From positions 1 to 34,686 of the forward strand of contig WHTT01000067.1 in NCBI GenBank assembly GCA_009377605.1: 34,686 nucleotides of DNA, in the 5' to 3' direction. The number at the start of each line of letters is the position of its first letter. Positions within the stretch are counted from its first letter, which is position 1. The position numbers and the translations under genes were made by a program. The notes below the pieces were generated by a model. The model was not told where the DNA came from. It ran no database searches and was given only the letters and a program-made list of their open reading frames with translations. The DNA comes from Luteitalea sp. Lineage in GTDB: Bacteria; Acidobacteriota; Vicinamibacteria; Vicinamibacterales; Vicinamibacteraceae. Shown here in pieces: positions 5,774-23,885 of this stretch.

Positions 5774-5851
5774 GGCGCGCTCGGCGAGCGCGCCCTACCT
5801 GGACCAAAGTAGGGACTGGACAAAAGGTAGGGACGCCTCGCCGAGGCGTCC
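5774..5851. repeat. Two REP-like palindromes between convergent genes
   Basis: There are two perfect 21-nt palindromes, each with 10-bp stems and a one-base centre: GGCGCGCTCG/CGAGCGCGCC at 5774-5794, followed by CTAC, and GGACGCCTCG/CGAGGCGTCC at 5831-5851, preceded by GGTAG. The two GTAG heads face each other. The first starts 1 nt after the ROK stop and the second ends 2 nt before the sulfatase stop, so the element fills the convergent gap and may act as a bidirectional terminator. Confidence 0.65.
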
Positions 5852-5853
5852 GC

Positions 5854-7344
5854 TCATTCTTCGTAGGCTGGCGGTCGCCAGGGCTGTCTTGGTTGCAAGA
5901 ACATCGCGTTTACCTCGCGGTACCAGGCGTGCAGCTGGTCCCGAAGCTCCTCGACGCGCTCCGGCTCCTTGGGGGCCAGGTCGTGGCGCTCCCCGATGTC
6001 ATCCGCCAAGTTGTACAGGTGAGCGCGGCCATCCTCGTACCGCTCGATCAGCTTCCAGTCTCCAACCCGCACGGCTCCACCGGGGAAGCCTCCCTGATTG
6101 CCGTAATGAGGATAGTGCCAGTAGAGCGGTCGGTTGGCGAGGGCTCCCGCACTCGCGCTTCCATCTATCGCGCGATGCCGCAGCAGCGGGACCAAGCTTT
6201 CTCCGTCGACGACCGTTCCCCCGTGCTCTGTGGCACCGGCGATCTCGAGGAGCGTCGGATAGACATCCACTGTGCTCACCGGCACATCGCTTGTGCTGCC
6301 TGGCTTCGTGACGCCTGGCCATGTGACGAGCCACGGCTCCCGAATGCCCCCTTCGTACAGCCAGCCCTTGCCGCCTCGCAGCGGAAGATTCGAGGTAGGG
6401 GCACCTTCCGATGTCGAAAGGCCGCCATTGTCCGAGAGGAAGACGACGACCGTGTTCTCGGCCAGGCCGAGCTCATCGAGCTTTGCCAGCACGCGGCCGA
6501 CGGCGGTATCCATCGTTTCGACCATGGCCGCGTACACGGCGTGCCGTTGTGCAACTCGCACGCGCCGCGGCTCGTCCACCGGCCACACTTGCTCCTCGTC
6601 TGCGAACTCCTCCACGGGTGGTAGTGCGGCCGCCTTGCGCCGGTACTTCGCGACCAGCGCCTCCGGCGCTTGCAGTGGCGTGTGGACGGTGTAGAACGAC
6701 AAATACAGCAGGAACGGGTCGTCTCTGAGCTCTTCTAGGAGCCCCACCGCTTCCTCGGCGAGCCGTGCCGTGAGGTGCTCATTGGGTGGGCCGTCCTCCA
6801 AGCGAGGATTGTTCCAGGGAGCAAAATAGCCCTTGGATGGCGCCCCGGCGCTGTGCCCACCGATGTTGATCTCGAAGCCCTGATTCTCTGGCCAGTACTC
6901 CTCGGTCGGTCCCAAGTGCCATTTGCCAAGGAACGCCGTCCGGTAGCCTACGGCCCTGAGGGCCTCCGCCAGCGTGATCTCCCCCAGCGGCATCCGGTCG
7001 CTGAGCGGCGCCGGCTTGAACCATCCTTCGCGGGTTCCGGTGAAGAAGTTGGTGGCCGCCACACGTGTCGGGTACTTCCCCGTCATGAGGCTGTATCGTG
7101 TGGGGCTGCAGACCGGATTGACCGCGTACCCGGTCGTGAACCGTAGCCCTTCGGAAGCCAGCCGGTCCACGTGCGGCGTCTCGTAGAACGTCTGGGGATT
7201 GTTCGCGCCGATGTCCATGTAGCCGAGATCGTCGACGAGAAAGAAGACGATGTTCGGCCGCTCGGACGGCGCAGCTCTGGGCCCTGGAGCGCTCCAATGT
7301 GCGCCGAGCAGCAGGGCGATGGTCAGGATGCCACGTGTCCGCAT
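5854..7344 (-). CDS. Secreted arylsulfatase-type sulfatase
   Basis: 496 residues with a cleavable signal peptide (residues 1-25, ILTIALLLGAHWSAPGPRAA). Calcium-ligand aspartates are in FFLVDDLGYMD (D38, D39). The sulfatase signature NPVCSPTRYSLMTGKYP supplies Cys79 for conversion to formylglycine; CxPxR is intact, so an aerobic FGE or a radical-SAM maturase must act on it, and neither is in this window. LGKWHLG and FLSDNGG complete the active site. It hydrolyses sulfate esters of glycans or aryl sulfates in the periplasm. The start at 7344 is 10 nt after the sialidase-like stop and has no strong ribosome-binding site, suggesting coupled translation. The substrate subfamily cannot be set by eye. 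Confidence 0.92.
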   Translation of the reverse strand: MRTRGILTIALLLGAHWSAPGPRAAPSERPNIVFFLVDDLGYMDIGANNPQTFYETPHVDRLASEGLRFTTGYAVNPVCSPTRYSLMTGKYPTRVAATNFFTGTREGWFKPAPLSDRMPLGEITLAEALRAVGYRTAFLGKWHLGPTEEYWPENQGFEINIGGHSAGAPSKGYFAPWNNPRLEDGPPNEHLTARLAEEAVGLLEELRDDPFLLYLSFYTVHTPLQAPEALVAKYRRKAAALPPVEEFADEEQVWPVDEPRRVRVAQRHAVYAAMVETMDTAVGRVLAKLDELGLAENTVVVFLSDNGGLSTSEGAPTSNLPLRGGKGWLYEGGIREPWLVTWPGVTKPGSTSDVPVSTVDVYPTLLEIAGATEHGGTVVDGESLVPLLRHRAIDGSASAGALANRPLYWHYPHYGNQGGFPGGAVRVGDWKLIERYEDGRAHLYNLADDIGERHDLAPKEPERVEELRDQLHAWYREVNAMFLQPRQPWRPPAYEE

Positions 7345-11823: not shown

Positions 11824-11910
11824 GGCGCGTTCGGCGAACGCGCCCTACCAGGAACAGCCGGTAGGACGCCTCGCCGAGGCGTCCCTACCACGCCTCGCCG
11901 AGGGAGGCGT
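11824..11910. repeat. Cluster of three REP-like palindromes
   Basis: Three palindromes stand in series: GGCGCGTTCG/CGAACGCGCC (11824-11844, followed by CTACC), GGACGCCTCG/CGAGGCGTCC (11864-11884, preceded by GTA and followed by CTACC), and an imperfect ACGCCTC/GAGGCGT (11890-11910). The middle one has the same 21-nt core as 5831-5851 and the first has the same core as 23140-23160. The cluster lies in the 5' leader of the beta-propeller gene, 5 nt before its AGGAGG. Confidence 0.65.
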
Positions 11911-21334: not shown

Positions 21335-21387
21335 AAAAGGAACCGGGTACCTTTTCGGGTCCGAAAAGGTACCCGGTTCCTTTTCAG
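21331..21387. repeat. Inverted pair of GGAACCGGGTACC repeat units; shared 3' hairpin
   Basis: A 28-nt arm starting CTGAAAAAGGAACCGGGTAC and a 27-nt inverse arm flank a GT centre; they differ by a single A. Each arm contains AAAAGGAACCGGGTACCTTTT, itself nearly palindromic. The TGA near each outer end is the stop codon of the flanking gene on that strand (21332-21334 plus, 21384-21386 minus). With its T-rich segments it should work as a bidirectional terminator. Another unit lies at 32626-32647. Confidence 0.7.
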
Positions 21388-22043
21388 CGGTTATCGAGAT
21401 TCCTCGCGAGCAGCGATCCGGCGTTTGCTCCGGCGACGGCGCGTCGCCGATGCTCGGCTGAGGCTGCTCCCTCCTTCATCAGCGACGCGGCGAACTCCAT
21501 TTCTGCGTTCGAGTCTTCAAGGTCGATCGCCTTACGGACGAACCGGTACCCATCCAGCGCTTCCGGCTCGCTGCGCAGGGTCCACGCCGACCGTTCGGCA
21601 CCCGAGAGCATGTCCCACCGATAGACGAGGCTCGCTTGCCGGTAGGTCTCGATAAGATAGCCCGCGTCGAACCAGGCGAGTGAATCGCGCGACCCGTCAG
21701 CCGCTGTTGTCAAGGCGCGTCCCAGTACGGCGCTCAAGAGCTCCGCAGTAATCCGGCGATCCTTTGTTGCATAGATCGTCGCGCGCCGCAGCGTTTCCAT
21801 ACGCGCCATGATCGGTGCATCGGCGGAGAGCAGACGCATCGTGTCGGCCGTAAGCCGCTCGATGTCGTACGAGGGGTCTGGCGAGTTCCAGGTGGAACCG
21901 CTGCTCCAGGGTAACACCGGCGCGTCGCCAGCGTCGAAGGAATGGCAGATCAGCGCCGGTCCTGCGAAGGCGGCGCGAGACAGGGTGAACAGAACGCCCA
22001 GAGCCAGCACACTTCTTGGAACGAGGTGATTTATCTTTCGCAT
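21384..22043 (-). CDS. Secreted protein of unknown function
   Basis: 219 residues; ATG 22043 follows a GGAGG site. The signal peptide (RSVLALGVLFTLSRAAFAGP) ends just before ALICHSFDAGDAPVLPW. The mature part is mostly alpha-helical (RLTADTMRLLSADAPIMARM, LRRATIYATK, EMEFAASLMKEGAASAEHRR) with one cysteine, and reads like a helical-repeat protein of about 190 residues. I recall similar secreted proteins in environmental genomes but cannot name a function. It ends in the shared inverted repeat with the stress-protein gene and is divergent from the TolB-like gene. Confidence 0.75.
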   Translation of the reverse strand: MRKINHLVPRSVLALGVLFTLSRAAFAGPALICHSFDAGDAPVLPWSSGSTWNSPDPSYDIERLTADTMRLLSADAPIMARMETLRRATIYATKDRRITAELLSAVLGRALTTAADGSRDSLAWFDAGYLIETYRQASLVYRWDMLSGAERSAWTLRSEPEALDGYRFVRKAIDLEDSNAEMEFAASLMKEGAASAEHRRRAVAGANAGSLLARNLDNR

Positions 22044-22173: not shown

Positions 22174-23172
22174 ATGCCGGCCGATTGGGTTCATACTGAC
22201 AAGGTGCCGCCCAATGCCGACGACGTTCGTTCTCAGCTCGACCGCCTGCTCGCGAGCAGCGCCTTCGCAAGCGCGGACCGCTTGAGCCGCTTCCTCCGCT
22301 ATGTCGTCGAGCGAACGCTTGCCGGTGAAGGGGATCGATTGAAGGAGTATGTCATCGGCCTCGAGGTCTTCGATCGCGGCGATCAGTACGACCCGCGTTT
22401 GGACTCGATCGTCCGGGTGGAGGCTGGACGCCTACGGGCCAAGGTAGACGACTACTACCGAGGAGATGGCCGCGACGACGATGTGATCATCCGGCTGCGG
22501 CGGGGCAGCTACGTGCCCCTGTTCGAACAGCGCCAGGCGCCGCCGTCCCCTTTGTCATCCCCCGACGCCTCGACGTCAAAGTCCACTGGCAAGGCGACCG
22601 GATGGCGACTTGCGCTCGGCATCGTCGCCGCCGGCCTGCTTCTCCTCGCCGTCGCAGCCTGGCGCACCGGCCTGTGGACGCCCGACGCGGCGCCAGCGCC
22701 CACCATCACCGTTGCCGTGCTGCCGTTCGCGCACTACTCCACTCACAAGGGCGACCAGCTACTTGCTGCACGCGTCACCGACGGCGTGACGAGTGAGCTT
22801 GCCCGCAACGGTGCGCTGGGCGTCGTGTCTCGCACGAGCGCTCTCCAATTTGCCAACGCTGGCAGGTCGCTGAGAGAAGTGGCACAGATGCTCAACGCGG
22901 ACATCGTCATCGAAGGCAGTCTCGTGCGGGAGGGTGACCGCGTACGCGTCGAGGCTCGCTTGGTCCACGGCCGGCAGGACCGCAAGTTCTGGGTGCAGGA
23001 GTTCGTCGGAACCGTCGCGGAGATTCCCGAGTTGCAGCGTCGTATCGCAACGGCGGCTGCCGCTGCTGCTGCCGCTGCTGCGACCGGTACCAGTAGGGCC
23101 GCCTCGCCGAGGCGGCCGGTATCTCGCCGGCATCCGGACGGCGCGTTCGGCGAACGCGCCCTACCATCGTGA
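22174..23172 (+). CDS. Membrane-bound TolB/FlgO-like regulator with repeat-encoded tail
   Basis: 332 residues. The N-terminal domain (about 15-120: LDRLLASSAFASADRLSRFL, LKEYVIGLEVFDRGDQYDPR, SIVRVEAGRLRAK) is the conserved helical domain of acidobacterial sensor/adenylate-cyclase-like proteins. A membrane helix spans 144-163, followed by a TolB-N/FlgO-like periplasmic domain (178-290: ITVAVLPFAHYST, VTDGVTSELARNG, VVSRTSALQF, ADIVIEGSLVREGDRVRVEARL). Related proteins usually continue into TPR repeats. Here the protein runs into ten alanines (294-303) and then 26 residues encoded entirely by a REP-like pair, which also supplies the stop. It may be truncated. The ATG at 22174 has a weak ribosome-binding site. 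Confidence 0.75.
   Translation: MPADWVHTDKVPPNADDVRSQLDRLLASSAFASADRLSRFLRYVVERTLAGEGDRLKEYVIGLEVFDRGDQYDPRLDSIVRVEAGRLRAKVDDYYRGDGRDDDVIIRLRRGSYVPLFEQRQAPPSPLSSPDASTSKSTGKATGWRLALGIVAAGLLLLAVAAWRTGLWTPDAAPAPTITVAVLPFAHYSTHKGDQLLAARVTDGVTSELARNGALGVVSRTSALQFANAGRSLREVAQMLNADIVIEGSLVREGDRVRVEARLVHGRQDRKFWVQEFVGTVAEIPELQRRIATAAAAAAAAAATGTSRAASPRRPVSRRHPDGAFGERALPS
23093..23164. repeat. REPIN-like repeat pair forming the 3' end of a gene
   Basis: GTAGGG (23093-23098) opens a perfect palindrome GGCCGCCTCG/CGAGGCGGCC (23097-23117). A second palindrome GGCGCGTTCG/CGAACGCGCC (23140-23160) closes with CCCTAC (23159-23164), so the two GTAG heads point outward in inverted orientation. The whole 72 nt is inside the reading frame of the TolB-like gene. 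Confidence 0.7.
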
Positions 23173-23193
23173 AGGTAGCGAGGCCTCCCGCGC

Positions 23194-23787
23194 TCATTCC
23201 TTGGGATATCCAGGATTAGCCTTGATCTCGCGAATCTGCAGAATGTGGCGCTGCGTGTGCGCCGAGATCATCAAGAACCACTGGTAAGCGTCCATGCTGC
23301 CGTTCACCAGGCGATGCGCTCGTAAGTCTTCCTGCGTCGTCTCCGCGAATTCGCGCATCTCCTTACGCAGTTTGCGAAACTCGGCAACCGCAGCCTTGTC
23401 GTCGTCCCAGCGGCCCGTGGGCAGGTCCGCCTGGACCGCTTGCTCGCGGTCGGTGCGGTCGATGCCGTACCAGAGGATGTCGGCATCCGAGATGCCAGAC
23501 TTCCCCGTCGGCTGCTGCTTCATCGAGTCCTGAAAGCGCTGCCAGTATCTGGAATCACCCACGGCGAGATGCTCGGCCACCTCCATGATGGTCCACCGTC
23601 CGGGCCTTGTCCGATACTTCAGCTGCTGTGGTGAGAGGCCGTCGAGCTCGGTGAGCAGCCAGGACTCGGTCATGTCCAGGTGCGCGAGCAAATGCTGCCG
23701 GTCCCGGTCCGTCATCGGCTCGGCACGGGCCGGAGCCGCACCGGCGATGGTCGTCAACATCACCATCGACGCAATTAGTGTTCGCAT
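23194..23787 (-). CDS. Secreted DinB-superfamily protein
   Basis: 197 residues from ATG 23787 (GAGG 6-7 nt upstream; a TTG at 23799 is less likely). A signal peptide (TLIASMVMLTTIAGAAPARA) is unusual for this mostly cytoplasmic four-helix-bundle superfamily but is seen in Acidobacteriota. The metal-site histidines are placed as expected: MEVAEHLAVGD for the first and ISAHTQRHILQI for the C-terminal pair. LTELDGLSPQQLKYRTRPGRWTI is the classic DinB entry motif. DinB-fold enzymes include thiol S-transferases and hydrolases; the reaction here is unknown. It is divergent from the M1 aminopeptidase gene (98-nt gap). Confidence 0.85.
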   Translation of the reverse strand: MRTLIASMVMLTTIAGAAPARAEPMTDRDRQHLLAHLDMTESWLLTELDGLSPQQLKYRTRPGRWTIMEVAEHLAVGDSRYWQRFQDSMKQQPTGKSGISDADILWYGIDRTDREQAVQADLPTGRWDDDKAAVAEFRKLRKEMREFAETTQEDLRAHRLVNGSMDAYQWFLMISAHTQRHILQIREIKANPGYPKE

Positions 23788-23885
23788 AGCCTGCCTCAAA
23801 CGCTACAATCCACCACGCCCCCTCCGGCCGTCAATACTGCCCTTCCCGATAGAGAACGAGGCCTGGTCTCTGATACCTTGGAACC

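What the first reader, a model, noticed from the sequence alone, without database searches (positions are those of the whole stretch)
23053..23172. Repeat DNA forms the C-terminus and stop codon of a TolB-like gene
The frame leaves the FlgO/TolB-like domain, passes ten GCN alanine codons, then reads straight through a two-hairpin REP doublet, giving an Arg/Ala/Pro-rich tail (residues 307-332), and stops 6 nt beyond it. This suggests a repeat insertion that truncated the gene (relatives often continue into TPR repeats) and created a new C-terminus.
Basis: partly seen in the sequence, partly recalled or inferred. Interest (0 to 1): 0.55.

Follow-up and report, generated by a model that had tools for sequence, protein, structure and literature searches.

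The report
Gene tail read from repeat DNA
A bacterial gene appears to have slipped past its old stop codon into a scattered DNA repeat, so the end of its protein is spelled by the repeat; the same repeat supplies pieces of several other proteins in this genome, an uncommon but already described phenomenon.

Summary
Gene 22174-23172 (+) passes ten GCN codons, reads through a two-hairpin GTAG-type REP (23093-23164) and stops at TGA 23170-23172. The truncation reading fails: seven short-form relatives stop 11-14 codons past the same domain, without TPR or this REP. The nearest (G001, 71% identical) already has the alanine run and ends CGG CAC CAG TAG; the window still holds CGG TAC CAG TAG, but out of frame. 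So a non-triplet indel in or beside the alanine tract lost the old stop, and the REP lying exactly there became the tail. A sequencing or assembly indel cannot be excluded.

Wider result: up to eight more genes of this genome read the REP in frame; in six of seven with a G001 match, the G001 protein lacks it. REPs also tend to sit right behind TAG: 42 of 88 outer left ends against 1 of 26 inner ones. Where a REP touches a gene's TAG stop, the G001 orthologue ends in TAG in 6 of 8. G001's own REPs show this weakly (4 of 23). Intragenic GTAG REPs and REP-supplied TAG stops are in print (PMC3733652); a pre-existing TAG target I did not find described.

The parts
22174..23172 (+). Short-form FlgO/TolB-like gene, 332 codons, with REP-coded C-terminus
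   Evidence: weak Pfam FlgO match at residues 180-265; relatives
23053..23082 (+). Ten GCN (alanine) codons; G001 has a similar alanine run without the REP; the net +5 nt difference from G001 lies in or beside it
23085..23096 (+). Relic of the old gene end, CGGTACCAG TAG, readable only in another frame; G001 has CGGCACCAG TAG as its real end
23093..23164 (+). GTAG REP doublet (two hairpins and a spacer)
23093..23117 (+). Left hairpin with GTAG head
   Evidence: 0 mismatches
23140..23164 (+). Right hairpin with CTAC end
   Evidence: 0 mismatches
23170..23172 (+). Present TGA stop, just outside the right hairpin
21384..22043 (-). Divergent upstream gene; its orthologue sits beside the short-form gene in 4 of 5 relatives tested
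23194..23799 (-). Convergent downstream gene (DinB-like by recall, not scanned); orthologue found near the gene in 1 of 5 relatives (G001)

Best explanation
A two-hairpin GTAG REP lies exactly at the old stop codon of a short-form FlgO/TolB-like gene (shown by comparison with G001). REPs of this family preferentially sit directly behind TAG in this genome (shown for the sampled copies), probably because they integrate next to a TAG that is already there (inferred). A net non-triplet indel in or beside the alanine tract then moved the gene into another frame (shown by comparison; order of the two events inferred). The old TAG is no longer read, the ribosome would read both hairpins, and it would stop at the TGA just outside (inferred; no expression data). 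The protein ends about 25-28 residues later than its relatives. The tail is probably tolerated rather than useful (inferred).
For: Seven short-form relatives end 11-14 codons past the domain, with no REP half from 100 nt before to 400 nt after the stop. G001 ends CGG CAC CAG TAG; the window keeps 11 of these 12 letters out of frame and is 5 nt longer between the last well-aligned codons and that point. G001 has the alanine run without the REP. Other genes of the genome show REP-coded tails or insertions that the G001 orthologue lacks (6 of 7 with a G001 match). In the same phase, L072 and L074 also read ...ASPRRP...GAFGERALP.
Against: A single assembly of a 382-contig genome; the indel sits beside a GCN repeat and I could not see reads. 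No strain-level genome was found. The window junction CCAGTAGGG is unusual: G stands before the head in 96% of 114 copies but not here. The region downstream differs between window and G001 (an extra antisense ORF in G001), so the 3' side of the insertion cannot be matched letter for letter.
Confidence: 0.65

Rival explanations
1. The frame change is a sequencing or assembly error in or beside the GCN tract. The real gene ends at the TAG at 23094-23096, which overlaps the REP head, and the REP is an ordinary 3' neighbour.
For: The old end is kept at 11 of 12 letters, as if still in use. REP heads supplying or touching TAG stops are common here: 14 TAG stops directly before the head and 7 formed by the head itself among 38 stop-near genes listed. 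Only one assembly exists in my hands.
Against: Several other genes read the REP in frame without such a tract. No direct sign of an error was found or could be looked for.
Confidence: 0.23
2. The REP arrived inside the last codons and was read in frame at once; no separate indel was needed.
For: In-frame REP insertions do occur in this genome (L082 inside the FabA-like domain, L159 inside IcmF).
Against: The letters CGG TAC CAG TAG upstream of and overlapping the head match G001's old end but in another frame, which calls for an indel upstream of the REP.
Confidence: 0.08
3. One reading: a REP insertion cut a longer TPR-bearing gene short.
For: More distant whole-domain relatives carry about 330-355 further residues (G017, G026, G042).
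Against: All seven short-form relatives end at the same place without a REP, and the five best whole-domain matches in the order are short. The convergent gene begins 21 nt after the stop, so no TPR remnant lies directly behind it.
Confidence: 0.02
4. The REP-coded tail has been taken into use, for example as an arginine-rich nucleic-acid-binding end, and is kept by selection.
For: Similar tails occur on unrelated proteins (L072, L074, L128).
Against: The tails sit on proteins with nothing else in common and are simply what that REP frame spells; there is only one sequence of this gene with the tail, so selection cannot be measured.
Confidence: 0.02

Closest known systems
GTAG-tagged REPs and their intragenic cases (PMC3733652, BMC Genomics 2013)
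   Same: GTAG head, hairpin, dimers in opposite orientation, location at gene 3' ends; [quoted passage not shown]
   Different: Here a sister genome shows the state without the REP and the frame change behind a tail; TAG lies in front of the element, outside it. Whether that paper's lists include this lineage is unknown to me (supplements not open)
Rickettsia palindromic elements (RPE)
   Same: Palindromic repeats read in frame inside unrelated proteins, as cited in PMC3733652
   Different: Different repeat and different phylum; here at least two internal insertions and several tails; no expression evidence. The original RPE papers were not read (recalled)
REPINs / BIMEs and RAYT-mobilised REPs (passages of PMC3116915 and PMC2817692)
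   Same: Paired REPs in many copies, with a Y1-type transposase gene in the genome
   Different: The intact Y1 gene (L106) is not flanked by this REP and the second one (L107) is a broken fragment, so the mobiliser is not identified

Membership tests
GTAG REP | GTAG head joined to a short hairpin | tested here: met
GTAG REP | High copy number, dispersed | tested here: met
   174 exact left-half matches on two strands, reversed control 0
GTAG REP | Mostly intergenic, near gene 3' ends | tested here: inconclusive
   38 genes ending near a head were listed among 114 heads by my own codon score; no gene annotation was available
RAYT-mobilised element | Transposase gene flanked by the same REP | tested here: not met
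   L106 flanks lack this REP at up to 4 mismatches; L107 broken, no REP near; genome 97.5% complete, so a missing gene is possible
Intragenic REP (RPE-like) | REP read in frame in a gene whose relative lacks it | tested here: met
   window and 6 of 7 further genes with a G001 match
Intragenic REP (RPE-like) | The REP-coded peptide is made | not testable with these tools
   no proteomic data
FlgO (Pfam PF17680) | Score over the curated cut-off | tested here: not met
   18.7 bits against 22.6; resemblance only

The most novel reading that the evidence does not exclude
This REP family integrates directly 3' of a TAG that is already present, with a preference for YTAG, so TAG stop codons are natural landing sites. 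The usual junction TAG/GTAGGG closes two reading frames and leaves one open; stop loss or in-frame arrival then repeatedly adds the same peptide modules (ASPRRP, GAFGERALP) to unrelated proteins. The TAG preference would be the target rule of a single-strand transposase not yet identified.
Probability: 0.35. Interest if true: 0.6.

Novelty: new member of a known kind. Interest (0 to 1): 0.4.

Why it matters
It is a step-by-step case of how extragenic repeat DNA can become protein: a repeat parked at a stop codon, then a slip of frame. The genome pair G000/G001 also allows a comparative test of where REPs land; PMC8266576 says that REP dissemination mechanisms are poorly understood (passages). 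If the TAG preference holds in more genomes, the long-noted closeness of REPs to gene ends would owe something to target choice.

Tried and rejected
Truncation of a TPR gene: rejected. REP as origin of the alanine run: rejected, G001 has the run without the REP. Known RNA family: three chance-level matches over 22900-23300, all far below their gathering scores. Y1 gene L106 as mobiliser: not supported; L107 is broken. L080 as REP-decorated gene: probably a spurious ORF, no Pfam match. L121: undecided, G001 is longer there and the linker does not align. L072: best G001 match only 33%, no orthologue. The search for related loci with the single protein found no relative; with the alignment it found 25 loci. 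My first alignment of relatives was useless because minus-strand loci had not been turned (mended).

Results against the TAG-target reading: in G001 only 4 of 23 heads follow TAG, 8 follow AAG. Where the REP's own TAG is the stop, G001 has TAG in 3 of 6, TAA in 2, TGA in 1. TAG is a common stop here anyway: 22 of 69 genes away from REPs in G000, 16 of 33 near REPs, 10 of 50 away from REPs in G001. The gene calls behind these counts are my own codon-usage score trained on 19 window ORFs, one of them the gene in question. Of 22 stop-adjacent genes sent to G001, 15 gave a usable orthologue; 7 (no match or weak paralogues) were dropped.

Full report
What is there. The window belongs to a 6.79-Mb, 382-contig genome (G000). 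I take the lineage to be Acidobacteriota (inference from these labels). The gene at 22174-23172 (+) encodes 332 residues. Ten GCN codons (23053-23082) are followed by a REP of two hairpins, 23093-23117 and 23140-23164, and by TGA at 23170-23172. The repeat is real: 174 exact matches to its left-half pattern on the two strands of the genome, 0 to the reversed control, 36 in G001 and none in the other 159 of 161 genomes of the order.

No truncation. Searches of 60 relatives and of 162 genomes of the order gave five relatives that match along the whole domain and end soon after it: G001 (71%), G008 (61%), G104 (53%), G014 (48%) and G102 (43%), with open frames of 299-323 residues. Their stops are TAG in four and TGA in one. 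The divergent upstream gene is conserved beside it in four of the five. A scan of titled genomes gave 25 loci. Six are short forms that stop 11-14 codons past the match; four of these are the contigs above by length, so L218 and L232 are additional, seven short-form relatives in all. Eleven of the 25 match to query residue 273 or beyond and run on for 335-648 residues; the other eight match only the N-terminal part and cannot be judged. No half of this REP, at up to 3 mismatches, lies from 100 nt before to 400 nt after the stop in any of the seven. Whole-domain relatives with TPR-sized extensions (G017, G026, G042) are at most 41% identical.

How the tail arose. G001 ends ...RRIAAAAAAAAAAPRHQ, then TAG (CGG CAC CAG TAG). 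The window has CGG TAC CAG TAG at 23085-23096, 11 of 12 letters the same, but in another frame of the gene. Between the last well-aligned codons and this point the window is 5 nt longer than G001, in or beside the GCN tract. The simplest reading is that the stop was lost by a non-triplet indel and the REP lying at the old stop is now read. The REP's GTAG overlaps the old CAGTAG. G stands before the head in 96% of 114 copies; the window's CCAGTAGGG is 4 nt shorter than CCAGTAG/GTAGGG would be, which loss of one of two tandem TAGG units would explain (inference).

The repeat in other proteins. In the fetched stretches of G000 and the window I looked for REP halves inside coding-like frames: 16 overlaps in ten ORFs, the window's included. 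For the nine others Pfam gives: L047 Peptidase_S9, L072 TPR, L074 Epimerase, L082 FabA-like plus Hexapep (a FabZ-LpxA-type fusion, names recalled), L108 ABC transporter, L121 DUF2339, L159 IcmF-related; L128 and L080 have no match. L080 is probably spurious, leaving up to eight. Seven had a good G001 match (58-88% identity). In six of the seven the G001 protein lacks the REP stretch: tails in L047, L074, L108 and L128, a longer stretch holding REP sequence inside the FabA-like domain of L082 (23 residues more than G001), and 9 residues (GRLGEAALP) inside IcmF of L159. L121 is undecided; L072 has no orthologue in G001. L072 and L074 use the same REP frame as the window.

Where REPs sit. Of 114 distinct left heads in the sampled stretches, 43 follow TAG, 28 of them CTAG and 10 TTAG. 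Among heads with no hairpin in the 90 nt upstream, 42 of 88 follow TAG; among the others, 1 of 26 (Fisher p = 1.3e-5). TAG makes up 0.43% of trinucleotides in these stretches. So TAG belongs to the flank, not to the element. Among 38 stop-near genes that I listed (the window's left out), 14 have their TAG stop directly before the head and in 7 the head's own TAG is the stop. Where a TAG stop touches the REP and a G001 orthologue was found, G001 also ends in TAG in 6 of 8, against 10 of 50 G001 genes away from REPs (Fisher p = 0.004). In six genes stopped by the REP's own GTAG, G001 has TAG 3, TAA 2, TGA 1; in three (L045, L066, L083) the protein ends at the same codon. Against a strict rule, only 4 of 23 sampled heads in G001 follow TAG, and related copies are not independent events, so the p values are upper-end readings. 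Sampling: the 100 listed copies in contig order, the best BLAST matches, and the window; neither was chosen by the upstream flank. For G001, 24 listed of 36 matches, 23 distinct after the edge filter.

What is known. PMC3733652 (section on genome distribution read whole; [quoted passage not shown] it cites in-frame palindromic elements in Rickettsia conorii. PMC12306157 (passages) deals with REPs within 15 nt of a stop codon in E. coli. In passages of PMC2817692, PMC8266576, PMC3116915, PMC6006769 and PMC3686654 and in the listings I saw no TAG target site for REPs. Only open-licence papers are held and I read passages of most, so this is no proof of absence. The case is a new member of a known kind, with one possibly new point, the target preference.

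Noticed in passing
L082:461-1921 (-), genome G000: REP sequence read in frame inside the FabA-like domain of a FabZ-LpxA-type fusion; the Pfam domain spans it and the G001 protein lacks it.
   Followed up: partly
L159:3-2024 (-), genome G000: Nine REP-coded residues (GRLGEAALP) inside an IcmF-related protein; G001 orthologue lacks them.
   Followed up: partly
L106:1447-1920 (+), genome G000: Intact Y1 (IS200-like) transposase gene, flanked not by this REP but by a second GTAG hairpin family, GTAGCGCAGGCC(n)GGCCTGC, seen 3 times in the fetched stretches.
   Followed up: partly
window 5774-5855 and 11824-11888: Two further REP copies of the same family, in intergenic stretches by the ORF list; one left half follows AAAAG, not TAG.
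   Followed up: no
L032 (G001), between the short-form gene and the DinB-like gene: G001 has an extra antisense ORF (OsmC-like by recall) that is missing at the REP position in the window, so the REP may mark a small rearrangement.
   Followed up: partly
sampled left heads, genome G000: Position -1 before GTAGGG is G in 96% of 114 copies, so the element may begin GGTAGGG and end CCCTACC; the right side shows no TAG-like preference but a partial ATCG.
   Followed up: partly
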